The notes below the pieces were generated by a model. That model saw nothing but the letters and a program-made list of their open reading frames with translations, made no database searches and was not told where the DNA came from. From Cyanobacteria bacterium RM1_2_2 (lineage in GTDB: Bacteria; Cyanobacteriota; Cyanobacteriia; Elainellales; Elainellaceae): a stretch of 64,000 bases of DNA. Position numbers and translations under genes: made by a program. Within the stretch, counting starts at the first letter, position 1, and every line of letters begins with the position of its first letter. The DNA lies in contig JAAUQT010000003.1 in NCBI GenBank assembly GCA_012033495.1, positions 1 through 64,000 of the forward strand, written 5' to 3'. Shown one piece after another: positions 16,265 to 34,726 of the stretch.

Positions 16265-18997
16265 ATGCCTAGTCTTGTTATCGTCGAATCCCCAACCAAA
16301 GCACGCACCATCCGCAACTATTTGCCCGCTGGGTATCAAGTTGAAGCCTCTATGGGGCATGTGCGCGATTTGCCTCAATCTGCCAGCGAAATTCCTGCCA
16401 ACGTCAAGGGGGAAGAGTGGGCAAAAATTGGTGTGAACATAGCGGCAGATTTTGATCCACTGTATGTTATCCCGCAGGACAAAAAGAAAGTGGTCAAAGC
16501 GCTGAAGGATGCCCTGAAAAACGCTGACGAACTGGTGCTGGCAACAGACGAAGACCGCGAAGGAGAAAGCATTAGCTGGCATTTGCTGCAAGTGCTTCAG
16601 CCCAAAGTGCCGATCAAGCGGATGGTCTTCCACGAAATTACTGAAGAAGCGATTCAGGCGGCGCTGCGCGATTGTCGCACCGTTGATGAGCAGGTCGTCC
16701 GCGCTCAAGAAACCCGCCGCATTCTCGATCGGTTGGTGGGCTACACGCTGTCGCCGCTGCTGTGGAAGAAAATTGCCTGGGGGCTGTCGGCAGGGCGAGT
16801 CCAGTCGGTGGCCGTGCGGCTGTTGGTGCGTCGAGAACGAGAACGCCGCGCTTTCCGCAAAGGCACCTATTGGGACTTGAAAGCCTCCCTCAGCCAGAAC
16901 AAGTTGCCCTTTGAAGCCAAGCTCGTCACCCTCAGAGGCACCCGGATCGCCACTGGAAGTGACTTCGACGAAGCCACCGGGCAAATTATCGCTGGACGGC
17001 AAGTGCTGCTGTTGGGCGAAGAGGAAGCCCACTCCCTGCAAGAACGGCTGCTCAGCGAAACTTGGACAGTTGCCAACCTGGAAGAACGCGCCTCCACGCG
17101 CAAACCCTCTGCGCCGTTCACCACCTCCACCCTGCAACAGGAAGCCAACCGCAAGCTGAGGCTCTCTGCCCGTGACACTATGCGCGTGGCCCAAAGCCTC
17201 TACGAGCAAGGCTACATCACCTACATGCGAACTGACTCGGTGAACCTCTCGCAGCAGGCCATTGCCGCCGCCCGCAACTGCGTCGAAAATATGTATGGCA
17301 AAGCTTACCTCAGTCCAGAACCGCGCCGCTATTCCACCAAAGCCAAAGGCGCTCAGGAAGCCCACGAAGCGATTCGTCCGGCGGGCAGCACCTTCCGCAC
17401 CCCGCAAGAAACCGGACTCAAGGATCGGGAACTGCGGCTGTATGACCTGATCTGGAAGCGCACGGTGGCCACCCAAATGGCAGAAGCCCGGCAAACCCAC
17501 ATTACGGTACAAATTCAGGTGGGCGATGCAGGCTTCCGGGCGACGGGCAAACGGATCGACTTTCCGGGCTTCTTCCGAGCCTACGTGGAAGGATCAGATG
17601 ATCCGAATGCGGCGATTGAAGATCAGGAAGTGATTTTGCCGCCGCTGAAAGTGGGCGACCATCCAACCTGCGAAGAACTGGAAGCGATTGATCACGAAAC
17701 CCAGCCTCCAGCCCGATACACCGAAGCTTCGCTGGTGAAAACCCTGGAAAACGAAGGCATTGGGCGACCTAGCACCTACGCCAGCATCATCGGCACGATC
17801 ATCGACCGGGGTTATGCCCAAATGGTGAACAACAGCCTCGTGCCGACCTTCACGGCGTTTGCAGTGACATCGCTGCTCGAAAAGCATTTCCCCGATCTGG
17901 TAGATACCAGCTTCACTGCGCGGATGGAGCGCACGCTAGACGAAATTTCTACTGGCGAAGCGAAATGGTTGCCCTATCTGCGCCAGTTTTATTTGGGAGA
18001 GACTGGACTAGAAACCCAGGTGAAACAGCAGGAAAGCCAGATCGATCCCAATGAAGCCCGCATGGTAGAGCTCGAAGGCATCGATGCGAAAGTCCGGATC
18101 GGGCGCTATGGGGCCTACATTGAAGTGGGCGAGGGTGAAGACTTGGTAAAGGCAACCCTGCCGCAAGACATCACCCCTGGCGATCTTGACCCAGAGCAGG
18201 TAGAAATTCTGCTGCGTCAGAAAACCGAAGGCCCCGACAAAATTGGGCTGCATCCCGAAACCGGAGAGCCGATTTATCAGCGCATTGGCCCTTACGGCCC
18301 CTATGTCCAACTCGGCGACGAAACCGAGTCCAACCCGAAACCTAAACGCGCTTCTTTGCCCAAAGGCATGAATCCACAGGAAGTTTCGCTGGAAACGGCG
18401 GTCAATTTGCTAGCTTTGCCTCGTCTATTAGGAAACCACCCGGAAACGGGAGCTAAAATTCAGGCGAACCTGGGGCGGTTTGGCCCCTACGTCGTGCATG
18501 ATCAAGGCAAAAACGGCAAAGACTACCGTTCCCTTAAAGGAGACGACAGTGTGCTGACTATTACTCTGGGGCGGGCGTTAGAACTTTTGGCAGAACCGAA
18601 AGCCGGACGAGGACGTGGCAAAACTGCGGCAAAACCGCTGCGGGAGTTGGGCGCTCATCCAGAAGACAGCGAACCTGTCAATATTTACGATGGCCCCTAT
18701 GGCCCCTACATCAAGCATGGCAAGGTGAATGCTTCTTTGCCAGAAGGTGAAACGGTGGAAGCCATTTCGATGGATGCCGCAGTCAGTGCGCTGGCAGCTA
18801 AAGCAGGCAGTAAGAGTAAATCCAGTCGAGGCAGCAAATCGGCCGCTAAATCGAATACTAAATCAACTGCAAAATCAACGACTAGCAAAACCTCTACTGC
18901 TAACCGCTCGGCTGCAAAGAAGACGACTAAATCTGCGACAAAAACCACAAAAACTAGCAGCAAAACCTCACGGTCAAGCAAATCAGCGAAAGACTGA
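16265..18997 (+). CDS. topA: DNA topoisomerase I
   Basis: A type IA topoisomerase that relaxes negative supercoils through a 5'-phosphotyrosine intermediate. The N-terminal TOPRIM domain shows [10 protein letters not shown] and the acidic ATDEDREGE motif. The active-site tyrosine lies in YITYMRTDS at about residue 330. The C-terminal third carries four copies of the topoisomerase C-terminal repeat ([32 protein letters not shown]) instead of Cys4 zinc fingers, followed by a Lys/Ser/Thr tail for DNA binding. This is the cyanobacterial layout. The ATG at 16265 begins MPSLVIVES; the ORF track start 45 bases upstream is not family-like. A transposon end abuts the stop codon. Confidence 0.96.
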
Positions 18998-19594
18998 CAT
19001 CCTCCCGACGCTGATGCTACGCATACAGCGCGGGGTTCCTCCTTCACCCAGCCGACTTGTCCAAACCAATTGCTTGATTTCCGTATGTCCTACGGTATTT
19101 ATTCCAACCAATCTCAGCCCCTTCTCCAAAATGTTCCACGCTGCGTTTTCGTCTTTGCATCGGACAGAGCCGCAGTGAGGACAAACATGAGTTCGGGTAC
19201 TCAAACTCTTTTGAACGGGCTGTTTGCAATCAAAGCAATCAATCGTGGTGTTCTGGGGTGGGACGGGTTGCTGCACTTTGCCAAAGATTTGGGCATAGTA
19301 TTTCACCCAATCGATAAACACGCTCCAGGCTGCATCACTAATTGATTTAGCCAGATGATGATTGCGAACCATATTCCGCACCTGCAAGTTCTCGTAGGCA
19401 ATCAAGTCGCTAGACATGACCAACGCACGGGCTTGTTTCACAGCCCAGTCTTTACGCTGCCGACTTACTTTCAGGTGTTGCCGTCCCAGACGATTAATCG
19501 CTTTTCTGCGATGCTTAGAGCAATATCTGACTCTTCGTGATGAAGTAGAAGCATTGTCAACCTTAAGGAGGAGAAATTGACTCTGTTTGTTCAC
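18983..19594 (-). pseudogene. TnpB (IS200/IS605-type RNA-guided nuclease), C-terminal fragment
   Basis: About 200 residues matching the C-terminal half of a TnpB protein: the KLGRQHLKVSRQRKD-type helix, the RuvC-II glutamate in LIAYENLQVRNMV, a CFDC...CPHC zinc ribbon, and the RuvC-III aspartate in KDENAAWNIL. The N-terminal half with RuvC-I is missing. A matching N-terminal fragment on the same strand lies at 20406-20759. The sequence past the stop (CATCCTCCCGACGC) looks like the right end of such elements and touches the topA stop codon. Without its N-terminus the protein cannot be an active nuclease; any omegaRNA at the right end would be a relic. Confidence 0.82.
18998..19040. mobile_element. 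Putative right end of the IS200/IS605-type element
   Basis: Immediately after the topA stop codon, the stretch starting CATCCTCCCGACGCTGATG and ending GCGCGGGGTTCC can form a small imperfect hairpin (GACGCTG / CAGCGC). It resembles the sub-terminal hairpins of IS605-family right ends. The left end was not found. Confidence 0.45.
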
Positions 19595-21759: not shown

Positions 21760-23363
21760 TCAACTCGAACCCGCGCTATTCAGATTTTTCCAAATAAACA
21801 AGCTAGTAATACCAACAAAAGCACTGAAAGCGGCTTGAATTAGCTCAAGATTACTATCACTTGCAACAGAAATAAACCACCATATCATCACGCCAACAGA
21901 TGAACCGATCAAGCCAAACAAAAGCAGCTTTATTGGGTTCCTTGGGTTGGTGGGGTCTAAGCCTTGCGATATCCAGATGGCTAATCCATTGACGAAGCCG
22001 CCGACAAAACTAGCGAAAAGTTCTATCAATGAATCACTTCCAGGCTTTAAGGCAGCAATTCCTAAAGCAGCGACCCAACCGCCAAGAATGATGCTGATCG
22101 GCAACACAAAGTCTTTACCGACGGAAGCAGCAAGTTTCTGTTCTATCTTTGCTAGCAGTACCCTTGTATCTTTATAAGTAGGGTCAATGCTAACAATTTG
22201 CTCGAACTTTTCATATGCCTTTTCCCAGTTCCGCAAATTTAGGTAGTGCTGTCCTCGATCATATAAATCATTTAATTGTCTGCGTCTTTCGTCATCCCGC
22301 ATTCGCTTCTGCGCTTGCGGCAATAGATTGTCTAGATCGAGATAAGTTGAATCGATTGCCCCGATTTCTCCAGAGACGACATCAATCACTCGCTGCCACT
22401 GCCCATTGCGGTAGTAGCTCCGTGCCCGCTCATAGAGTTCAGCAATCTGCTTTTCTTTCTTTTTTAGTTCTTCCTGTAAGATACCGTTTGCTTCTGCTTC
22501 AGGAAGTCCCAAATCCTGTCGGATCTGCTCCAGTCGAATTTTCGCATTCTGGGATAAATTGCGATTAGCTGCAAACTTTCTAACTTGTTCACGGTATTGC
22601 TTCAAATTCAATTCTTTTTCGTAGGCTCGGTCGATATTGATCTGAATCTCAATTTGTTCATTCTGTGAAAGTTGGTTGGTTGAATTAACCCCGATCGGAC
22701 TGGAAACGATCGCTGGTTTCGGCTTTTGCTTTAATTGTGGCTTTAAATGTTCTGGAATTTTGACCCGTTCAACCGATTGTTCAACAATACCAACTACAGT
22801 AGCCATGCGTTCCGCCTCTGAAGCAACCGAGCGACGAGCCGTATTTCCAGACTCCGAAATGGTGAGATGAATTTGATTGCAGCCAAACCTATAAGCCTGT
22901 TCAATTGTCTTGCCATATCCAAGAGCTTGATAAAAGCCTTTAGAAAATGCAATGGCCGCACTATCCAAAATCTCCTGGCTCATACCGATCACGTAGTTAA
23001 TATGTTCCACAATGGCGTCTGCTTGGACCTCTGAATAGCAGGCATTCAGCAACACACATTCTACCTGCTCAGAAAACAGCCCAAAGAAATTCTTAAGCGC
23101 ATCTGTGGAAACCAATTGCTCTCGCCCAGACTCATCTTGCAGAACTAGACCCCTTGCGCCTGTCCCATGCCCACAGAAATGCACAACTTGCGGATTGTAC
23201 TTCAATAACAGCCCTTGCAACTCATCCGTCCGCGCCGCCAATCCAATTTCAACCTCAAACTGTTCCCGCTCTCGTGATCGTTCGATCATGCCCTGCAAAT
23301 CCTTAATTTCTTTCATGAGATTAAGGTCTTTCGTGGGTTAGATTCCAGAATCAGAATTTTCAT
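21760..23363 (-). CDS. Membrane-anchored CHAT-domain (caspase-like) protein with TPR-like region; frameshift near start
   Basis: CHAT is a caspase-fold protease domain used in bacterial cell-death and conflict systems. The catalytic His (VVHFCGHGTG) and Cys (VLLNACYSEV) are intact, followed by the FSKGFYQALGYG helix. After a charged coiled-coil/TPR-like region (YERARSYYRNGQW; YDRGQHYLNLRNWEKAYEKF) come about four hydrophobic helices, so the protein is membrane bound with CHAT in the cytoplasm. The track starts at 23316, but an upstream frame from ATG 23363 encodes the missing first CHAT strand (MKILILESNPRK) and joins if one base is restored in the T-run at 23329-23331. It is divergent from the FHA gene. 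Confidence 0.86.
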
Positions 23364-23744
23364 GGAAGGAATATTAGAGATAATGAGTGTACCTAGATTA
23401 ATCCTGCCTACTAGATAATATAGGCTCCTATGTATTCATAGGTATCTGTTCTGTATTTTATACAAGCAAGGAATATTTAGTAGAGCGAAGATTTCATATA
23501 AGTGGATTCAGCTAGACGGGCACGGAGTTCCGCAATTCCACAGGAGAGTTCCTTAAATCTTAATGATTGAACACACACCTTGGGTAGATTTTTCCGTAGA
23601 TTTAGGATTAAGATAGCCCATATTCTTGATTGCGAATCAATGTTCTGCCTAAAGTTTAGGTTTCCTTCGTCTTGGAAAGCTAGGGTCGAACCGTATTGCT
23701 TATGTCGCCCAACTTCACAGTACGTGGATATGTAATTAGCTAAG

Positions 23745-23765
23745 AGTACCCATGCGGGTACTTTT
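23745..23765 (+). terminator. Hairpin with T-run upstream of the FHA gene (possible attenuator)
   Basis: AGTACCC pairs with GGGTACT around a 4-base loop, and a short T-run follows. It lies about 170 bp before the start of the FHA gene, in the 570-bp gap between the divergent CHAT and FHA genes, with no gene in front of it on the plus strand. It could attenuate a long leader or end a small RNA. The rest of the gap shows no recognisable gene. Confidence 0.4.
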
Positions 23766-23933
23766 CAGACTCTTGAATGTTCCTTCACAATCAAAGGGCG
23801 TGGTGACTATCAACCTGGCGATTGACTGGTGTTCATGCAATAGATAACGTGGAACTGTGTTTGAATGGCGCAGTCATTTTGAGGTTTGGAATTTCAGTAC
23901 GGTTTTCAACTGTAGAAGTTAGAGGAATTCCCC

Positions 23934-25676
23934 ATGCGTAAGCATTTCAGGTACCTGTTAGTAATGTTCGTGGCTCTATTACTGCCCCTATTTCAGATTT
24001 CTTGTTCTCAAATTCCGCAATCAACTTCAAATCAACCTAGCCCAAGGGATAAGCTTGCTACGGCTGCTAAACCTGCTGTTGTACGTGTTATCGCTGGTTG
24101 TATTGGCAACTATGAGTACAAGCCTACTGATGAATCTGAGCCGATTTACCGAGCGTTTGGCTATGGCATTTCAGGATCTGGATTTTTTATAAACTCAAAT
24201 GGGTATATTGCAACATATGCAATTAAAAATGAGTCGGATTGTAAGGAGCGGCTCTTTCAAAACTTGGTTTCACAGCTTAGAACAGAGTATTATGATTCCG
24301 AATATCCTGATCCAGACTCTAATTTGAGAAAGCAGTATCCCAATCAAGTTCTAAATTTAGATGAAAGTGAAATCAGGAAAAGAAGTACACTGCCAGACGG
24401 TAACTTTCAGTATATCAATTCCGTAATTCTGCCTCACCCAGATTCAAAAGATTATTCTTTTGAGGTCAAAGAGTCTGGTGGGCCATTGGAAGATGGCAAA
24501 GACGATGTTTCTATTATTAAAATTAATCTTGAAAAAGAGAATGCGCCTTCCCTCAGACTTGGAGACTCTGACAGAGTGCGCTTGGATGACGTGACTGTGA
24601 TTGGATATCCGGCAAATGATGCTGCTGCTGATAGTTACGAGAAGGTGCTCAATGATAAAGCAGTCTATGAAGCATCGGTTAGTGAAGGCAGAATCTCTAA
24701 TCCGAATAAAAAAACAAAAAGTAATTCTCCTGTCTTAGAGATTAATGTGTCTGCTAGCTACGGCAGTGCTGGTAGTCCGGTACTGAATGCTCAAGGCGAA
24801 GTAATTGGCATCATTGCTCCTACAAAAGCAGACCGGAATCCTTTTATCGAAGTACCTGGAGAAGACAAGGTGCGTGTCAGAGACAAAGGTATTCCTCTTG
24901 CCGTTCCTGCTAAAAAGATTCAGGAGTTTGTAGAAGCTAGTGGTACTTCTAATAAGCCAGGAGAAGTTGACGAATGGTATGGCAGAGGACTGAACCAATT
25001 CTGGCAGGGGGATTATGAAGGTGCAATCAAGAGGTTTGAAGTGGTTGAAGACCTCTTCCCAGAACACTCAGAAGTTGAGAGGCTGATTAGTGAGAGCAAT
25101 AAAAGCAAAGTCATTATTGGGATTCAACCAGCAACTCTCTTGTGGGGAGTACTTGGTACGGTGATTGCAGGATTGTTAGGATTAGTCTTCTTCCTCATGC
25201 GACGTAAGCCTCGTCCTGTCAGTAAAGTTTCAGCTTCTGCGGAACCTGAAAGAAGACCTCGCCCGCATATTACTGGATATCCTGCGGATAACGGTATAGG
25301 GCAACCGTGGGTTGAATTGGAAGGGCAAGGTCAGATTAAGAAGTTGCAGCTTAGTAAAGGTAGCCATCGGATTGGGCGTGATCCCGCTTGGTCTGACATA
25401 GAAATTCCGGCAAATTGGGAAGTGTTGTCGAGACATCATGCTCTGCTAAAGCGTGAGGACAACAGCTACCGTATCTTTGACGGAGATGGTAGGGTTCCTA
25501 GCCGCAATGGATTGTTTGTCGATAACTACACTCGTGTTGATGTGAACGAGGGCTATCTGCTGAAACCTGGTGATACGCTAATCATCGGTAAAGATCCCCA
25601 GGAACAGGTGCGGCTAACCTACTACAATCCAACTGCTAGCCAAACAACACCAGAGACGAAAGTAGCCAGATCTTAA
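23934..25676 (+). CDS. Secreted pseudo-trypsin with membrane span and cytoplasmic FHA domain
   Basis: A 580-residue protein in four parts. Signal or lipoprotein-like N-terminus (LLPLFQISC). Trypsin/HtrA-like domain at about residues 30-330 (GSGFFINSNGYIAT, DDVSIIKIN, SYGSAGSPVLNAQGEVIGI). One TPR-like helix pair (WYGRGLNQFWQGDYEGAIKRF). A membrane helix at about 400-420 followed by RRK, then a cytoplasmic FHA domain (HRIGRDPAWSDIEI, LSRHHALL, NGLFVDN). The His of the usual TNAHV motif is absent (ATYAIKN) and the nucleophile position reads Ala (GSAGSP), so it should be catalytically dead. FHA domains bind phosphothreonine. AGAGGA precedes the ATG at a good distance. It lies upstream of a Ser/Thr kinase on the same strand. 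Confidence 0.85.
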   Translation: MRKHFRYLLVMFVALLLPLFQISCSQIPQSTSNQPSPRDKLATAAKPAVVRVIAGCIGNYEYKPTDESEPIYRAFGYGISGSGFFINSNGYIATYAIKNESDCKERLFQNLVSQLRTEYYDSEYPDPDSNLRKQYPNQVLNLDESEIRKRSTLPDGNFQYINSVILPHPDSKDYSFEVKESGGPLEDGKDDVSIIKINLEKENAPSLRLGDSDRVRLDDVTVIGYPANDAAADSYEKVLNDKAVYEASVSEGRISNPNKKTKSNSPVLEINVSASYGSAGSPVLNAQGEVIGIIAPTKADRNPFIEVPGEDKVRVRDKGIPLAVPAKKIQEFVEASGTSNKPGEVDEWYGRGLNQFWQGDYEGAIKRFEVVEDLFPEHSEVERLISESNKSKVIIGIQPATLLWGVLGTVIAGLLGLVFFLMRRKPRPVSKVSASAEPERRPRPHITGYPADNGIGQPWVELEGQGQIKKLQLSKGSHRIGRDPAWSDIEIPANWEVLSRHHALLKREDNSYRIFDGDGRVPSRNGLFVDNYTRVDVNEGYLLKPGDTLIIGKDPQEQVRLTYYNPTASQTTPETKVARS

Positions 25677-25922
25677 TGCCGGAAAATTCAGTGAAGCTCA
25701 ATGCAATTTGATTGCAACCGTTTCAATGCATTGCTGGCACTCACCCAGAGGCAGGCTCATTGATCTACCTTCTATGATCTGCCTCCTGTGTGAGTAGCTT
25801 GGGCGAGCAGCCTATATGAGCGATAAGTGGCTTTGCAATTTCATGCTGTTTCAGTCAGGCTGAGAAACAGTATCCTAACTGTTATGGCAGGATGAGTGGT
25901 AAAGGCTCAGGAGAGTCAGGCA

Positions 25923-28213
25923 ATGCAGGCATTTGATGGCAAGCTAGTCGGCGGGCGCTATAAAGTCATAAACAGGCTTGGCGGGGGTGGTGGTGGTGAA
26001 ACCTACACTGCGGCTGATATGCACCGTCCGGGTCATCCCAAGTGTGTAGTCAAACGCCTAAAACCCGCTACGAATGATCCCAGTTTGTTACCGATTGCTA
26101 GAAATCTCTTTAACAGAGAAGCAGAAACATTAGAGCATTTAGGACACCATAACCAAATTCCTCGGCTGCTGGCTTACTTTGAAGAAGATGCAGAGTTTTA
26201 TCTAGTCCAAGATTTTATTGAAGGTCATCCGCTGAATGTAGAGTTGCCCGCAGGTCACTGCTGGTCAGAAACTAAAGTGATTCAATTGCTGCAAGATGTG
26301 CTGACTACGCTGGAGTTTGTGCACAGTCAAGGCGTCATTCACCGAGATGTCAAACCTGCAAACCTGATCCGACGTAATCAAGATAATAAGCTTGTCCTGA
26401 TTGACTTTGGTGCGGTTAAGCAAGTTCGAGGAGACACCCAGGCAATTACCCACAGTCGCATCATTAACCCAACTACAATTTCGATTGGCACAGAGGGCTA
26501 CATGCCGCCAGAGCAGTGGATGGGCAAGCCCTACTTGAGTAGTGATATCTATGCATTGGGCATGATCGGCATCCAAGCATTAACAGGCACCGATCAAATC
26601 CATTTGGCACAACTGCCGCGAGATTCAAGGCTTGAGGTAGTGTGGCAGCCTAAGACCCAAGTGAGTGACGAGCTAGTCGTTATTCTCAGTAAATGGTGCG
26701 TTACCACTTCATGCAGCGCTATCAGTCTGCCACGGAGGCATTAGAGGCACTTCAGGGCTGCATTAATGGGGTGATGAAATCCTCTAACCAGGAACAGGTT
26801 CATCCACAAATTGGCGATGCAGACAATTCCCAATCTACCTGGGTTATTCAATCTTCAGAACCAACTCTCAAACAGCAGCTTGAACCATTCGAGACTAAGG
26901 TTAGTTCAGCGAATAGAGCTGCTGCTCAGCAGCCCGTTGCGGAGATTCAATTGGCAGCAGATAGTAACCCTGTACCACAATTAGGGGAATGGGTGCGAGA
27001 AGCTGAGATAATCCCCGGAGAAAGAACGAGCAACGTAGAGACCACATCTTTACCTACGCACCTGCAAGCAGAGCTAATACCAAAGTCGGAATCAGAGATA
27101 CAAGCGACAAAAGTTAGCTTGATGACAGAGCCGCTACCACCCGAAACCAGCGCTGAGGTTCAGCTAGCAGAGGCAAAGGTTGCTCACCCAACTGAGCCAC
27201 AAATCCAATCTGCTAATGTAGATGGGCTACCAGAAACGAAAGTCAGTGCAGAAGCAGTGAAAGCTGAGCTACCAGAAACAAAATTCAGCCAACCCGAACG
27301 ATTGCAGCCACACACCGAACTTCCAGAAACAAAATATAGCCAGCCCGAACGTTCCCAGTCCGTTTCAGAAATACCAGAAACAAAATATAGTCAACATGAG
27401 CGATCGCATTCAGAAATACTAGAAACTAAGTACAGTCAGCCGGAGCGAGTACACTCATCTAACCTAGCCGCTAATTTAACCACGAACGTACCAGAAAACA
27501 TAGTAGAGACAAAATTCAGTCCAGATTCAACCCCAGTTGCTTCACCCCATGGAGTACAGTTCCCATCTCGCTTTCGGCAAAAACGCTGGTTGGCAGTAGG
27601 TTTGGGTACGGGCGCAGCAGTACTTGCAATCGTTGCTGCTTTGCTTGTGATCAAGCCAGGATCTGAAGTGGGGTTAGATAGTCCACCCGATAACCCACCA
27701 GAAACACCGCTGCCAGAAACACCACTGCCCGAGTTGAAGGGAGACTATACCCAACTTCAAAAATATTTAGAGGCAGGCAAATTGGAAGAAGCTGATCGAG
27801 AAACCTATGAAGTGATGCTGAAAGTTGCAGGAGAGATTTCAGAGAAACAGGGTTACTTTGCAATAAATGAATGGCAGAAGTTTTCTTGTGAAGACTTTAG
27901 AGAAATTGATCGCCTTTGGAGTAAAACGAGTGGAGGTAAGTTAGGTTTTAGTGCTCAGACAAGGATTTTGAATGAAGTCACTGATCCAACTAAAAGCCCA
28001 GAGGAGAATGGTTTTAAGTATCTAAATGAAATTGGTTGGCAAAAAGGGCAAAAAAGAGTCGTAGCTTTGGAAAAACCCACAGGTAGCAATCGATTTGTGT
28101 ATAAGACTGAACCAACTTTCGAGAATCCCCCGCCTGGTCATTTACCAGCCAAACTAATTTGGAGCAATCAGAAAGATGAACGATTTGCTATGGTTCGTAA
28201 ATGTGAGCTCTAA
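25923..28213 (+). CDS. Transmembrane Ser/Thr protein kinase with C-terminal GUN4 domain; frameshifted
   Basis: About 763 residues once one A is restored in the A-run at 26691-26693, which joins ...VVILSK to MVRYHFMQRYQSA. The kinase domain (about 10-275) has a Gly-rich loop, the VVKRLK lysine, HRDVKPANL and DFG motifs, so it should be active. The linker carries five or more repeats of the form PETKYSQPERS. A membrane helix at about 560-585 (WLAVGLGTGAAVLAIVAALLV) places the following GUN4 domain (YTQLQKYLEAGKLEEADRET; FSCEDFREIDRLW; GFSAQ) outside the cytoplasm. GUN4 binds tetrapyrroles in known proteins. I prefer ATG 25923, with GGAG upstream, to GTG 25896. Confidence 0.88.
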
Positions 28214-28423
28214 ATTCTACGATTTTTAGTTTTACTTAAACTAAAATTTCAACAATTCCTTGTAGAATTTTCGTAAGTGGCATTTAGTCTAGAGTAGACA
28301 GATTCAGCAAAGGTTTGCTTAATCAAAAAGAGTGTTTGTAGTGCAATGTGGCAGCTTACTTCAAGAGAGGTAAGCGTGGATTGAATAGCTGCAAGAAAAG
28401 TAACCTTCTAGGAATTAATTAAG

Positions 28424-29152
28424 ATGAAAAAGATCTACTTAGCCCTGCTCCTCAGTTTCCTTGGAGTTGTATCCCTGAATCCAGTATTGGCTGAAACTTC
28501 TCAAAATGGAAATCAGTCAGCACCTGAGGCAGAAACTCAGGTTACACCTGTACAACCCCAAGACAGCCAAGAACCGTCCGAGGCAGAAGGGGCAGATGTC
28601 AATGCACCGCCTTTGGGTGGAACAGTTCCAGACACAACAACGCCAACAGGAGAAACTGTCGTTGTTGAAGATTACAAGCAATATCCAGAATATAGCGAAT
28701 TGCAAGCCGCCTTGCAGCAACAGCCCCCCAACTGGCAGCTGGCTGACCAAAAGACTTATGAACTAATGCTGAGAATTGCAGGCGCTAACTCTCAGAGTCA
28801 AGGAGCTTTCGCTGTAGATGATTGGCAGCAATTTCCTTGTAATGCTTTACAGGATATTGACCAACTGTGGATGCAAGCTAGCTCTGGGCAGCAAGGTTTC
28901 AGCAGACAGTGGGACATCTTTCAATCTGCCAGGCCGAACCAGGAGTTGTACTATTACCGAATCGGTTGGAAAGAATTATCTGGAGCTTGGAAAGTAGCGT
29001 GGAGAATTCGAGATAATAATCTGGAATATATTCAGAATGCTTCTCCTAACTTTACAGATCCTCCAGCCGGCCATTTACCCGCAGGACTAGAGTGGCAAGA
29101 TGGCAAAGATTACCGATTTCAAGCGGTCGATCGATGTGGTTTGAATCAATAA
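28424..29152 (+). CDS. Secreted GUN4-domain protein
   Basis: A 242-residue exported protein. A clear Sec signal peptide (MKKIYLALLLSFLGVVSLNPVLA) is followed by an acidic/Pro-rich spacer to about residue 90. The rest is a GUN4-like domain aligning with that of the preceding kinase (YSELQAALQQQPPNWQLADQKT; FPCNALQDIDQLW; QGFSRQ; PPAGHLPAGLEW). Both proteins share a Cys in the F-x-C segment and another near the C-terminus, which could pair outside the cytoplasm. Location outside is unlike the Mg-chelatase regulator Gun4. It lies 210 bp after the kinase on the same strand and may supply a soluble ligand-binding partner (inference). Confidence 0.83.
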   Translation: MKKIYLALLLSFLGVVSLNPVLAETSQNGNQSAPEAETQVTPVQPQDSQEPSEAEGADVNAPPLGGTVPDTTTPTGETVVVEDYKQYPEYSELQAALQQQPPNWQLADQKTYELMLRIAGANSQSQGAFAVDDWQQFPCNALQDIDQLWMQASSGQQGFSRQWDIFQSARPNQELYYYRIGWKELSGAWKVAWRIRDNNLEYIQNASPNFTDPPAGHLPAGLEWQDGKDYRFQAVDRCGLNQ

Positions 29153-29245
29153 TCATCAGCAGAAAGCGCCAATTTTTTTGTAAAAGACAAGCCAACTAGA
29201 GAATGAACTCCTTTGGCTGAAGCTGAATCAAAATTGTAAGGAATT

Positions 29246-30133
29246 ATGAAAGTATCAAAGTTTTGTTTATCGATGTTGCTGTTCATCTTGGGATATTGTT
29301 GCCTTTCTGTAACCTCAGCCAAAGCAGCAGAAACGGTAGTAACAGAAATACCTCAAATTGCCCAAAATGAACCTGACTCCGTTCAAACTCCGGTTCAAGA
29401 TGCCGAACTTCTGGATAGTCCATCTCTGATTTTAGAGACTACTCCAAGTGAACAATCTGACCTCGTTTTGGAAGAAGGTCCAGGCGTTCAAGATGATTTA
29501 ACGGTTGGAAGCCCCAGTGAAAAGAATCCCGACTTCTCAGGAGTGATCGCGACGCCTGCACCCCCACTAGGAGATGTGACGGAGGATGTAATTGTCTACA
29601 CTCCAGTAGAAGCACCTACTGAAGTAGTTGTCTACACCCCGGTAGAAGCACCCGAACCTGAAGCTGTCATCATTGCAACTGCTCTTCCTGTTGACGCTCC
29701 TCCTGCACTGACTCCGGTGTCCACTAAGCAAGTGGCAATTGAGAACGTTACTTTCCTCTGCGGCGAAGATGGCAATGATCCGGCAACGGTTGCAAAAAAT
29801 AAAGACGAAGAGGAATTTTTCGTCATTGTTTGGAAGTCTGGCAACTTTGAAACTGCCGGATACGACGATCAAACTCGCTGTAAGCAAGTCTCTGCTCGGT
29901 TTGAAGAATATAACAAAGGTAAACTGCTGACTTACCTTGCAACAGGCAAGCTAAACGGACAGCCAGTAATTTGCCTCACGAGCAAAGCAGATGGAAGTTG
30001 CGGAGACGAAAGTATTTCATTACATCAAGGATTGCTGTTTACGCTCAAACCTAATGAGAATTCTGATCAAACCCTGGAGGAGTTGGTTGCTGTCATTGAT
30101 GGTAGGTCAGGGCAGAAGAGGCTGGAACAATAA
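29246..30133 (+). CDS. Secreted COP23-domain protein
   Basis: A 295-residue exported protein. It has a Sec signal peptide (cleavage near SAKA-AE) and an acidic, Pro/Val-rich spacer with a VVYTPVEAP-type repeat. The C-terminal COP23-like domain of about 125 residues has three invariant-looking cysteines (FLCGEDG, TRCKQVSARF, PVICLT) and the LLFTLKPNE end. COP23 was named from a circadian-oscillating membrane-associated protein of cyanobacteria; its biochemical role is unknown. The spacer style resembles that of the preceding secreted GUN4 protein. It is the third same-strand gene after the kinase. Confidence 0.8.
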   Translation: MKVSKFCLSMLLFILGYCCLSVTSAKAAETVVTEIPQIAQNEPDSVQTPVQDAELLDSPSLILETTPSEQSDLVLEEGPGVQDDLTVGSPSEKNPDFSGVIATPAPPLGDVTEDVIVYTPVEAPTEVVVYTPVEAPEPEAVIIATALPVDAPPALTPVSTKQVAIENVTFLCGEDGNDPATVAKNKDEEEFFVIVWKSGNFETAGYDDQTRCKQVSARFEEYNKGKLLTYLATGKLNGQPVICLTSKADGSCGDESISLHQGLLFTLKPNENSDQTLEELVAVIDGRSGQKRLEQ

Positions 30134-30297
30134 GCAACCCACCTGACTGAATTCTCCATCACTGACTTAACCAGTGGAGAGTTGGCTCTGGCAATAAATC
30201 AGTCAACTAATGGCTAAAGTGAGAGCGTTGCTTGAGAGAATAGATTGATCAGGTTCAATTCGGGTTCAATTCAGCTAATTCGATCGCTCAAGCAGAT

Positions 30298-31886
30298 ATG
30301 GTTTACGCAGTTGATTTTGGCACAAGCAACACAGTTGTCGTTCGGTGGAATTCCGTTACGCAAGCTCCTGAGACATTGACTCTCCCTGGTTTGTCGCAAA
30401 AGTTGGGCAACAATCCACCGCTGATTCCGAGTTTAGTATATGTAGAAGACGCAACGCGAGGGGAAATTGTGGCAGGGCAGGCAGTCCGCGATCGAGGATT
30501 GGATCTCAGCAGCAATCCTCGCTTTTTCGCAATTTTAAGCGCGGCATCAGTGCAGAAATTCAAGGATTTTTGCCGGAGTTAGACGGGCGCGTGGTCAACT
30601 TCGAGCAAGCCGGACAGTGGTTTTTGACAACTTTGCTCAGTCAGCTTCAGGTGATTGAACCAGACATTGATTCACTGGTGTTTACAGTTCCGGTTGATAG
30701 TTTTGAAGCCTATCGCCTCTGGCTGACGCAGGTTTGCTACTCACTTAATATCAATGAAGTTCGATTGCTCGACGAGCCAACGGCAGCCGCACTCGGCTAT
30801 GGCTTGACCAATCAGGGAACGCTGCTGGTAGTGGACTTTGGCGGCGGCACGTTGGATTTATCCGTGGTGCGGTTGGAAGGCGGACGGCAAGCTCAGTCAA
30901 AGCCAGTCGGTTTTTTGCTCAAATGGGGGCAGCGTGTTCTAGAAGAATCGGCTCAGCGACCCAAATTAGCGCGGGTGCTAGCGAAAGCTGGACAGAACTT
31001 GGGCGGTGCGGATATTGACGGTTGGCTAGTCGATCACTTTGCTGATCAAGGTTTAACCGCGTCTCCATTAACGTTACGGCTTGCAGAACGACTTAAAATT
31101 CAGCTTTCGCAGCAGCCAGAAGCCGCTGAAGTTTATTTCAATGATGAGACGTTAGAGAGTTATGACCTCAAGCTGGATCGGTCTCAATTCGAGCAGGTGT
31201 TGCAGCAGCACCAGTTTTTCGATCGGCTTGATGCCACCCTAACGCAAGTGTTGCAGCAATCCCAGCGGCAAGGACTCACCCCCGATGACATTGAAGCTGT
31301 CCTGCTGGTCGGTGGAACTGCCCAAATTCCGGCGGTCAAAGCCTGGATCGAGCGATACTTCCCGGTAGAAAAAATTCGGGCAGAGAAACCCTTTGAAGCA
31401 ATTGCTCAAGGCGCACTCCAACTCAATCAAGGCATCGAGATTAAAGATTTTCTCTATCACAGCTACGGAATTCGCTATTGGGATCGACGCAATAACTGCC
31501 ACAACTGGCATCCCCTGATTCAGCAAGGGCAACCTTACCCGATGCCAGAACCCGTCGAACTGCTGCTCGGAGCCTCTATGGAAAATCAGCCTAGCATCGA
31601 GTTGATTATTGGCGAAATCGGCACTGAAACCAGCAGCACGGAGGTTTATTTTGATGGCGATCGGCTGGTGACTCGCAGTTTAGCTGGCAGTCAGTCCGTG
31701 AAACCGCTGAATGATCAGGGCAATGCCAAAACCATCGCTCAGCTTGATCCCCCCGGATATCCGGGCAGCGATCGGGTCAAGATTTTGTTTCGAGTCGATG
31801 AAGCGCGGTTTTTGCGAATTACCGTAGAAGATCGGCTCACCCTGCGAACGTTGATGGAAGATCGCCCGGTGGTGCAGTTGAGCTAG
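30298..31886 (+). CDS. Hsp70-like ATPase, frameshifted
   Basis: An actin-fold/Hsp70-family protein of about 529 residues after restoring one T in the run at 30523-30527; the corrected join reads NPRFFRNFKRGISAEIQGFLPELDG. Phosphate-1 (VYAVDFGTSNT), phosphate-2 (LLVVDFGGGTLDLS) and adenosine (VLLVGGTAQIPAVK) motifs are present. The substrate-binding part is short (about 120 residues) and lacks the helical lid of DnaK, so this is one of the stand-alone Hsp70-like proteins of cyanobacteria. It lies 164 bp after the COP23 gene on the same strand. Its stop codon is the first three bases of a family B repeat. Confidence 0.87.
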
Positions 31887-33103: not shown

Positions 33104-34726
33104 ATGAGCTACTGCGTGAATCCAGCCTGTTCTAATCCTGAAAACTTGGCCCAAGCTGACTACTGTCAGACTTGCGGTTCTAAGCTGTTGTTGCGCGATC
33201 GGTATCGGGTGCTGCAAGCGCTTGGGCAAGGCGGCTTTGGGGCTACTTTCCTTGCTAAGGATGAAGCGTTACCCGGCAGTCCCTATTGCGTTATCAAACA
33301 ACTGCGTCCGGCGGCCTCTTCGCCTCATGTCATGCAGATGGCGCGGGACTTGTTTGAGCGGGAGGCTAACACCCTCGGCAAGGTAGGAAATCATCCCCAA
33401 GTGCCCCGTCTGCTGGATTATTTTGAGGTCAATAACGAGTTTTATCTAGTACAGGAATATATCAGCGGCTCGACGCTGCAACAGGAAGTGAAGCGATCTG
33501 GACCGTTTAGCGAAGCGGGAGTCAAGCAGTTTTTGAGTGAAGTGCTGCCGATGCTGCAATACATTCACAATCAGCAGGTGATTCACCGAGATATTAAACC
33601 CGCAAACTTAATTCGTCGATTGCAAGATCGCAAGCTGGTTTTGATCGATTTTGGTGCGGTTAAAGATCAGGTCAATCCAATGCGAGCAGGAGCTTCTGAG
33701 CAAACCGCTCTCACCCAATATGCAATTGGCACACCTGGCTATGCCCCGCCTGAACAAATGGCGATGCGCCCCGTTTATGCCAGCGACATCTATGCGTTGG
33801 GAGTAACGTGCCTTTATCTATTGACCGGCAGATCGCCGAAAGACATGGACTATGACCCTGCGACAGGTGAAATCCTCTGGCGCGAGCAGGTGCACATCAG
33901 CGATCACTTCACCGATGTGCTGAAAAAAATGCTGGAAGTCTCGGTGCGCCATCGTTACCAAAATGCTACAGAAGTGCTGCGAGCGCTCGACCTTGAACCT
34001 TATCTTGATAGTTTGGCCAGAGGCATGGTGAGTCAACCCACCCGCTCGCCAGGGAACCGTCCGCAACTTTCTCACTCAGGAGAATTGGGCGACGCCACCA
34101 GCCCTTCTTCTCCAACGGCGCGGATGGCAGCGGCGATTCGAGCACGTCAGGCTGCGAAGTCAATCTCTGGCCCGCTCAATGCCGATATGACTGCCCTCCA
34201 GACAGGTGTTTCGCGTCGGCGTGCTACGGTGCAAGAAGCCTCATCCCTGACCACGATTCACTCGCGCGGCATGGCGAGTAATCCCAGCGGTGCTCCTAGA
34301 CTTTCTGCTGAAGAGTTGCTGTCTGCTTATGCCAAAGGCAAGCGAGATTTTACGAACCACGATTTGAGTGCGCTGAACTTGACTAAAGCAGATTTGTCAG
34401 GGGCAAACTTCCATCAGGCAAAGCTGCATAAAATTAATCTGCAAGGGGCAAATTTACTCAACGCTGATTTTGGTCGAGCAAATTTGAGCCAGTCTTGCCT
34501 GAAGAATGCTAGGCTCGCTCGCGCTTACTTGAACCATGCCGATTTAGCGGGAGCCGATTTGCGGGGCGCAGACCTCAGCTATGCCTATATGAGCCATACC
34601 AATCTGCGAGGCGCAAACCTTTGTGGGGTTGATTTAACAGGCGCGAAAGTGTCGGACGAGCAGTTAGCCATGGCTCGCACCAATTGGGCTACGGTTCATC
34701 CGAGCGGCAAACGTGGACTTTGGTAG
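33104..34726 (+). CDS. spkB: Ser/Thr protein kinase with N-terminal Cys motif and C-terminal pentapeptide repeats (SpkB-like)
   Basis: A 540-residue cytoplasmic kinase. The N-terminal zinc-ribbon-like motif (CVNPACSNPENL...YCQTCGSK) is followed by the kinase domain at about residues 30-300, with GQGGFGATFLA, VIKQLRP, HRDIKPANLI and DFGAV all intact. A Ser-rich linker follows, then eight or so pentapeptide repeats of the A(N/D)LxX type (LTKADLSGANFHQAKL onward). This matches Synechocystis SpkB, whose Cys motif is needed for autophosphorylation and which is linked to oxidative stress. The symbol is assigned on architecture alone. The GCATG start at 33104 is the first Met before the Cys motif. 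Confidence 0.85.
   Translation: MSYCVNPACSNPENLAQADYCQTCGSKLLLRDRYRVLQALGQGGFGATFLAKDEALPGSPYCVIKQLRPAASSPHVMQMARDLFEREANTLGKVGNHPQVPRLLDYFEVNNEFYLVQEYISGSTLQQEVKRSGPFSEAGVKQFLSEVLPMLQYIHNQQVIHRDIKPANLIRRLQDRKLVLIDFGAVKDQVNPMRAGASEQTALTQYAIGTPGYAPPEQMAMRPVYASDIYALGVTCLYLLTGRSPKDMDYDPATGEILWREQVHISDHFTDVLKKMLEVSVRHRYQNATEVLRALDLEPYLDSLARGMVSQPTRSPGNRPQLSHSGELGDATSPSSPTARMAAAIRARQAAKSISGPLNADMTALQTGVSRRRATVQEASSLTTIHSRGMASNPSGAPRLSAEELLSAYAKGKRDFTNHDLSALNLTKADLSGANFHQAKLHKINLQGANLLNADFGRANLSQSCLKNARLARAYLNHADLAGADLRGADLSYAYMSHTNLRGANLCGVDLTGAKVSDEQLAMARTNWATVHPSGKRGLW

What the first reader, a model, noticed from the sequence alone, without database searches (positions are those of the whole stretch)
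21760..31886. Candidate undescribed envelope-signalling system: CHAT / pseudo-protease-FHA / kinase-GUN4 / secreted GUN4 / COP23 / Hsp70-like
Five consecutive plus-strand genes face a divergent CHAT gene. Seen: FHA (phosphothreonine reader) on the cytoplasmic end of a transmembrane pseudo-trypsin; an intact Ser/Thr kinase whose outside end is a GUN4 domain; a soluble secreted GUN4 copy; a secreted COP23 protein; an Hsp70-like ATPase; and a membrane-bound CHAT caspase-like protein. Inference: the outside GUN4, COP23 or pseudo-protease domains sense a ligand (GUN4 proteins bind tetrapyrroles). The kinase signals to the FHA protein, and CHAT is a possible proteolytic effector. Individual domain types are known in cyanobacteria; I know of no description of this set as one system.
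Basis: partly seen in the sequence, partly recalled or inferred. Interest (0 to 1): 0.85.

Follow-up and report, generated by a model that had tools for sequence, protein, structure and literature searches.

The report
Kinase-controlled membrane cell-death module
A cluster of cyanobacterial genes that keeps the same order in distant relatives appears to encode an outside sensor, a kinase and a phosphate-reading membrane protein wired to a membrane-anchored death-type enzyme that is swapped from species to species, so it is probably an undescribed bacterial self-destruct or defence switch.

Summary
The domains reported are present, and the neighbourhood is a real conserved unit. In five cyanobacterial genomes trypsin-TM-FHA, kinase-TM-GUN4, secreted GUN4 and COP23 occur in the same order and orientation. 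In a sample of 390 genomes the secreted GUN4 is found only in the genomes that carry this cassette. Hsp70 is chromosomal backbone, not part of the set. The GUN4 domains lack the bilin-binding motif of GUN4 orthologs. The pseudo-protease state is derived; most relatives keep the catalytic triad.

New here: the neighbouring effector is exchanged between loci (CHAT, C14 caspase, TIR), while the membrane tail that anchors it, four predicted helices, is kept. In two genomes TIR and tail are separate proteins that both carry the adaptor domain EAD9. The kinase linker carries seven ETK[VFY]S repeats, and the FHA protein ends in the same motif in 5/5 GUN4 cassettes.

Best reading: an outside-in kinase/FHA switch gating a membrane-anchored death-type effector, a new variant of the predicted bacterial conflict/cell-death systems. 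Unit well supported; mechanism and death output inferred.

The parts
21760..23363 (-). CHAT (caspase-fold) - TPR - four-TM-tail effector; ORF as read is 21760-23316, true start probably 23363 with a one-base frameshift at about 23329-23331
   Evidence: Pfam CHAT/TPR; His and Cys of the dyad present; TM tail; upstream frame reads MKILILESNPRK
23934..25676 (+). Secreted trypsin/HtrA-fold pseudo-protease - TPR - TM - cytoplasmic FHA, ending in TPETKVARS
   Evidence: Pfam; triad lost; HtrA fold; FHA pThr residues GR481-482, SR499-500, NG525-526 kept
25896..28213 (+). Ser/Thr kinase - ETK[VFY]S-repeat linker - TM - extracytoplasmic GUN4; split in this assembly by a one-base deletion at about 26691-26693 (ORFs 25896-26744 and 26693-28213)
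   Evidence: Pfam; single ORF in L039, L056, L109, L111; K, HRD and DFG present; linker repeats
28424..29152 (+). Secreted stand-alone GUN4 paralog
   Evidence: Pfam; signal helix; found only in cassette genomes; lacks LxNxLR
29246..30133 (+). Secreted COP23 protein, last gene of the conserved cassette
   Evidence: Pfam; same position in five cassettes
30298..31886 (+). Hsp70-like ATPase, NOT part of the system (chromosomal backbone next to SpkB); one-base frameshift at about 30523-30528
   Evidence: absent from all other cassette loci; next to SpkB in same-genus G001 without the cassette

Best explanation
The genes 21760-30133 encode one membrane signalling switch. Outside the cytoplasm, the GUN4 tail of the kinase, the secreted GUN4, COP23 and the HtrA-fold domain form the sensor layer. 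Inside, the kinase phosphorylates threonines in the ETK[VFY]S repeats of its own linker and/or in the ETKVA tail of the FHA protein. The FHA domain reads these phosphothreonines and assembles the complex at the membrane. The assembled complex controls a neighbouring death-type effector held in the same membrane by a conserved tail of four predicted helices: here a CHAT caspase-fold protease, in relatives a C14 caspase or a TIR enzyme. Shown here by sequence: the conserved gene set, the topology predictions, the effector swap on a conserved tail, the EAD9 pair, and the shared threonine motif. Inferred: phosphorylation, FHA docking, activation of the effector, and cell death or defence as output.
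For: Same four genes in order in window, L039 (Drouetiella hepatica), L056 (Symploca sp. SIO3C6), L109 and L111. Secreted-GUN4 profile: the only full-length matches among 390 genomes are the four sampled cassette genomes. Effector next to kinase + FHA-protease in 10 of 12 evaluable loci: CHAT-TM, C14-TM, TIR-TM, or TIR-EAD9 with EAD9-TM, against 0 of 10 comparable GUN4-kinase/GUN4 loci without the FHA protease. Closest relatives (window and L039, support 1.0) differ in effector catalytic domain but keep 37%-identical tails. Tail signature W17/G39/G43/G47/G78/W82 over 11 proteins; an HMM trained on CHAT/C14 tails finds the TIR and EAD9 tails and no other ORF of the loci. Linker ETK x7 observed against 0.14 expected, and x4 in two relatives. 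The FHA C-terminal [ED]xT[KR][VM]A motif occurs in 5/5 GUN4 cassettes and in none of the other 438 ORFs of the loci. FHA phosphothreonine residues are kept.
Against: No experiment. Two of 12 kinase + FHA loci (L114, L110) lack a recognised effector, and an FHA-protease branch in family f16 lacks both kinase and effector. L109 and L111 have short kinase linkers without repeats. The tail homology between caspase and TIR/EAD9 groups is modest (E 9e-10 to 4e-3) and hydrophobic sequences inflate scores; some shuffled tails score in the same range. CHAT, C14 and TIR genes are common in these genomes. The assembled sequence carries three frameshifts, so function in this very strain is unproven.
Confidence: 0.6

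Rival explanations
1. Envelope-stress regulator without a death output: a DegS-like HtrA sensor joined to a kinase adjusts gene expression or envelope repair, and the CHAT/C14/TIR neighbour is a processing enzyme of that regulon.
For: HtrA/DegS fold of the outer domain; intact protease triad in most relatives; secreted COP23/GUN4 partners.
Against: The swap between death-type enzyme domains on one tail, TIR included (a non-protease fold), and the EAD9 adaptor fit conflict systems better; sporadic distribution.
Confidence: 0.22
2. Tetrapyrrole or light-status sensor: outside GUN4 domains bind a porphyrin or bilin and drive the kinase.
For: GUN4 fold family; profile matches solved GUN4 structures; Kaur et al. 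suggest GUN4 domains sense tetrapyrroles (PMC7159879).
Against: The LxNxLR bilin motif (Asn211/219) present in the canonical GUN4 of this genome is absent in all ten cassette GUN4 domains (PMC10156173). Other cassettes replace GUN4 by a TPR-like ectodomain. Porphyrin binding itself is not excluded.
Confidence: 0.08
3. Accidental neighbours: separately transcribed accessory genes with no common function.
For: Intergenic gaps of 94-220 bp in the window; GUN4, COP23 and CHAT are all common cyanobacterial families.
Against: Conserved order in five divergent genomes, exclusive co-occurrence of the secreted GUN4, shared motif in kinase and FHA protein, negative control loci.
Confidence: 0.04

Closest known systems
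EAD-based NTP-dependent conflict systems (Kaur et al. 2020, PMC7159879; Iyer et al. 2021, PMC8195603)
   Same: TIR, caspase and trypsin domains, EAD adaptors pairing effector and core, effector swapping, sporadic distribution, GUN4 domains in cyanobacterial members
   Different: No MoxR/vWA/STAND/GTPase core in these loci (L110, with a kinase-NACHT fusion, is the exception); the core is a transmembrane Ser/Thr kinase plus an HtrA-TM-FHA protein, with extracytoplasmic sensors and a membrane tail as effector anchor
Cyanobacterial kinase-GUN4 fusions (Zhang et al. 2007, PMC2176072; also surveyed in PMC1262709)
   Same: Kinase-GUN4 domain architecture
   Different: Sampled Nostocaceae-type kinase-GUN4 genes are solitary: no FHA protease, secreted GUN4, COP23 or adjacent effector
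GarA/OdhI FHA switch (PknG substrate; PMC5448819)
   Same: Ser/Thr kinase plus FHA protein that carries a phosphorylated ET-containing motif in a disordered tail
   Different: Soluble metabolic regulator; here the FHA is the cytoplasmic end of a membrane HtrA-fold protein and the same motif is repeated in the kinase; phosphorylation not shown
DegS/HtrA membrane-anchored sensor proteases
   Same: HtrA protease fold outside the membrane with a single TM
   Different: No PDZ domain, cytoplasmic FHA instead, catalytic residues lost in this strain
Defence kinase PD-T4-6 models in PADLOC
   Same: Kinase and GUN4 stretches match these broad models
   Different: The match is to broad kinase models; no multi-gene system of this kind is recognised

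Membership tests
EAD-based conflict systems (Kaur/Iyer) | NTPase or GTPase core (MoxR-vWA, STAND, GAP1) | tested here: not met
   No NTPase among the Pfam-scanned cassette genes; only L110 has a kinase-NACHT neighbour
EAD-based conflict systems (Kaur/Iyer) | Matching EAD on an effector and on a core protein | tested here: inconclusive
   Met in L109 and L111 (EAD9 on TIR and on the TM protein); weak and on one partner only in L045; not in the window
EAD-based conflict systems (Kaur/Iyer) | Exchangeable death-type effectors | tested here: met
   CHAT, C14, TIR at the same position
GUN4 orthologs | LxNxLR bilin-binding motif | tested here: not met
   Alignment with the canonical GUN4 of this genome
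GUN4 orthologs | Porphyrin binding and Mg-chelatase stimulation | not testable with these tools
   Needs binding and enzyme assays
HtrA/DegS proteases | Trypsin-like HtrA fold | tested here: met
   AF2 model (pLDDT 75) matches HtrA1/DegS/DegP
HtrA/DegS proteases | Intact His-Asp-Ser triad | tested here: not met
   Lost in window and L039; kept in L056, L109, L111, L041, L042, L044, L045, L112, L040 and others
GarA/OdhI-type FHA switch | FHA with phosphothreonine-binding residues | tested here: met
   GR, SR and NG residues conserved
GarA/OdhI-type FHA switch | Phosphorylated ET motif bound by an FHA domain | not testable with these tools
   Motif present and enriched; phosphorylation and binding need biochemistry
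Eukaryote-type Ser/Thr kinase | Catalytic Lys, HRD, DFG | tested here: met
   CVVKR, HRDVKPANL, DFGAV present
Known anti-phage systems (PADLOC) | Full set of genes of a described system | tested here: not met
   Only single-domain matches (chat, caspase, ThsB, PD-T4-6)

The most novel reading that the evidence does not exclude
A previously undescribed outside-in programmed-death or defence system of bacteria: a transmembrane Ser/Thr kinase with exchangeable extracytoplasmic sensors signals through phosphothreonine-FHA docking to a membrane platform, a four-helix tail, on which TIR, caspase or CHAT effectors are interchangeably mounted, either by fusion or through EAD9 pairs.
Probability: 0.45. 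Interest if true: 0.88.

Novelty: new variant of a known kind. Interest (0 to 1): 0.74.

Why it matters
Most described bacterial death-effector circuits sense threats inside the cell and use an NTPase or nucleotide messenger (background knowledge and PMC7159879). This unit would put an extracytoplasmic sensor and kinase/FHA phospho-signalling, closer in logic to animal receptor-triggered death, upstream of the same effectors. It also gives a natural experiment for the EAD adaptor hypothesis: in some loci the effector is fused to the membrane tail, in others the two are separate proteins that both carry EAD9. The conserved T-x-[hydrophobic]-S/A motif gives a short list of residues that can be tested directly.

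Tried and rejected
Disulfide as a secretion marker: the two cassette GUN4s share a Cys pair, but so do paralogs without a signal peptide in the same genome, so it says nothing about location. Hsp70 as a member: rejected. Empty-site comparison in the genus: topA and SpkB, which flank the region here, lie on different contigs in the relatives, so only the right-hand boundary is informative. Plasmid-borne copies: none (one 26%-identity protease match only). Structural relatives of the TM tail: none in PDB at E<=0.001. Search for the T-x-phi-S motif in the effector linkers: nothing consistent. Single monophyletic origin of GUN4 cassettes: not resolved, deep nodes have support below 0.5. Programmed frameshift in kinase-GUN4: not supported, relatives have one continuous frame and CHAT and Hsp70 show the same kind of lesion.
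Full report
WHAT IS THERE. Hydropathy gives a signal helix and one TM in the FHA protein, one TM between linker and GUN4 in the kinase, only a signal helix in the second GUN4 and in COP23, and four TM at the C-end of the CHAT protein. So FHA, kinase and CHAT domain face the cytoplasm, and trypsin fold, GUN4 domains and COP23 face outward. Kinase catalytic residues (CVVKR, HRD, DFG), the CHAT His/Cys dyad and the FHA phosphothreonine residues are present. The trypsin domain has lost His and Ser; its AF2 model (pLDDT 75) is HtrA/DegS-like.

FRAMESHIFTS. Three genes are broken by one missing base in a short run: CHAT near 23330, kinase-GUN4 near 26692, Hsp70-like near 30525. The kinase-GUN4 is one ORF in L039, L056, L109 and L111; the Hsp70-like gene is an intact 531-aa ORF in a same-genus genome. 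Assembly error is the simplest reading (335-contig draft), but real lesions cannot be excluded.

CONSERVED CASSETTE. FHA-protease, kinase-TM-GUN4, secreted GUN4 and COP23 occur in the same order and direction in the window, L039 (= L055, Drouetiella hepatica), L056 (Symploca sp. SIO3C6), L109 and L111, at 35-50% protein identity to the window for the FHA-protease and down to 27% for the secreted GUN4. COP23 and GUN4 as families are common (274 and 384 of 390 genomes), so their presence alone means little. But the full-length secreted-GUN4 profile (E below 1e-90) hits only the four sampled genomes that carry the cassette; the next matches (1e-44) are other GUN4 proteins, mostly kinase fusions. 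The cassette is sporadic: FHA-protease matches at E<=1e-80 are in 3 of 65 and 6 of 42 genomes of two other families, and no full-length FHA-protease or secreted GUN4 was found in the four other genomes of the window's genus. The Hsp70-like gene is not found at any other cassette locus and sits next to SpkB in same-genus G001 without the cassette, which puts the right-hand boundary of the cassette between COP23 and Hsp70.

SENSOR SWAP. In L041, L042, L044, L045 (and truncated L043) the FHA-protease is followed by a kinase whose outside part is a TPR-like or unassigned region instead of GUN4; in L041, L042, L044 and L045 the protease triad is intact. L045 also has a COP23-PPC gene. L112 has a third ectodomain and a secreted PPC protein.

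EFFECTOR SWAP. The gene next to the FHA-protease, divergent in most loci, is CHAT-TPR-TM in the window, C14-TPR-TM in L039 and L056, C14-TM in L042, CHAT-TM in L041 and L044, CHAT plus a separate TM protein in L045, and TIR-TM in L112 and L040. In L109 and L111 a TIR-EAD9 gene follows COP23 and an EAD9-TM gene precedes the FHA-protease. Counting loci with kinase and FHA-protease together, 10 of 12 evaluable ones have such an effector (not L114, L110; L040 has the effector but no kinase and is not counted). As background, ten carrier genomes average about 27 CHAT and 18 TIR_2 matches; with C14 added and about 6,000 genes (both assumed, not measured) this is roughly 1% of genes.

SHARED TAIL. 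Window and L039 FHA-proteases are sisters (support 1.0), yet one has CHAT and the other C14 on tails 37% identical. Over 11 proteins the tail keeps W17, G39, G43, G47, G78 and W82 and is modelled as four helices (pLDDT 77) with no solved structural relative. A profile of CHAT/C14 tails finds the EAD9-TM, L045-TM and TIR tails (9e-10 to 4e-3) and no other ORF of the loci; shuffled hydrophobic controls reach part of this range, so homology of the most distant tails is likely but not proven. The EAD9 pair fits the proposal of Kaur et al. that EADs couple domains by homotypic contact (PMC7159879): in other loci the same tail is fused directly to the effector.

PHOSPHO-DOCKING MOTIF. The window linker has ETK seven times (0.14 expected by shuffling); L039 and L056 have it four times each. 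The FHA protein of all five GUN4 cassettes ends in [ED]xT[KR][VM]A or close to it (ETKVARS, NETKMA, AETTRMA, DPTRVAQ, DPTRMA), a C-terminal pattern found in none of the other 438 ORFs examined at these loci. In the non-GUN4 loci the same T-x-hydrophobic-S/A pattern lies before the FHA domain (TVMS, TVLS, TLMS) and is enriched in the kinase linkers of L044 and L045. Limits: L109 and L111 linkers are short and lack repeats, and the motif was noticed in these proteins before it was tested. GarA offers a precedent for an FHA protein regulated through an ET motif in a disordered tail (PMC5448819).

LIGAND. The canonical GUN4 of this genome has LSNQLR (LxNxLR); all ten cassette GUN4 domains lack it. 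In PMC10156173 this motif goes with bilin binding and is missing in paralogs. Tetrapyrrole sensing is therefore weakly supported; the ligand is unknown.

LITERATURE. Kinase-GUN4 fusions were listed in 2007 (PMC2176072); GUN4, trypsin, caspase, TIR, kinase and EADs appear in the conflict-system papers (PMC7159879, PMC8195603), but searches of the open full-text library found no description of this kinase/FHA-protease/tail unit. Subscription papers and preprints were not covered.

VERDICT. One unit: about 0.9. Kinase-to-FHA phospho-docking: about 0.6. Death or defence output: about 0.5.

Noticed in passing
window 18983-19594 (-): ORF reading like the C-terminal part of a TnpB/IS605-type protein (Zn-ribbon CxxC motifs) between topA and the cassette; a possible mobile-element remnant (by eye, not searched).
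   Followed up: no
window 33104-34726 (+): SpkB-type kinase with zinc-ribbon start and pentapeptide repeats, 80-86% identical in four same-genus genomes; next to the Hsp70-like gene in G001.
   Followed up: partly
L056:11764-14559: Symploca version of the kinase is a tandem double kinase (kinase-linker-kinase-TM-GUN4).
   Followed up: no
L017-L023, L026 (about 800-870 aa proteins): A separate family with an N-terminal FHA about 40-54% identical to the cassette FHA, widespread in relatives; partners unknown.
   Followed up: no
L110:6013-11209 (-): FHA-protease beside a kinase-NACHT fusion (broken into ORFs), a possible link between this unit and STAND-type conflict systems; triad also looks lost.
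   Followed up: partly
L041:12966-14147, L044:12672-13844, L042:13195-14379, L114:13476-14546: A WD40 gene with a signal-like N-terminus sits just downstream of the kinase in four loci; may be a further secreted sensor.
   Followed up: no
L061-L066: Proteins with the same trypsin-TPR part and mostly without a detected FHA (acidobacterial except L065, a cyanobacterium; one weak FHA match in L063).
   Followed up: no
L039:13956-19998: Three more CHAT genes lie beyond the cassette in Drouetiella, one with an NTPase-like C-terminus by eye; could be a defence-rich region.
   Followed up: no
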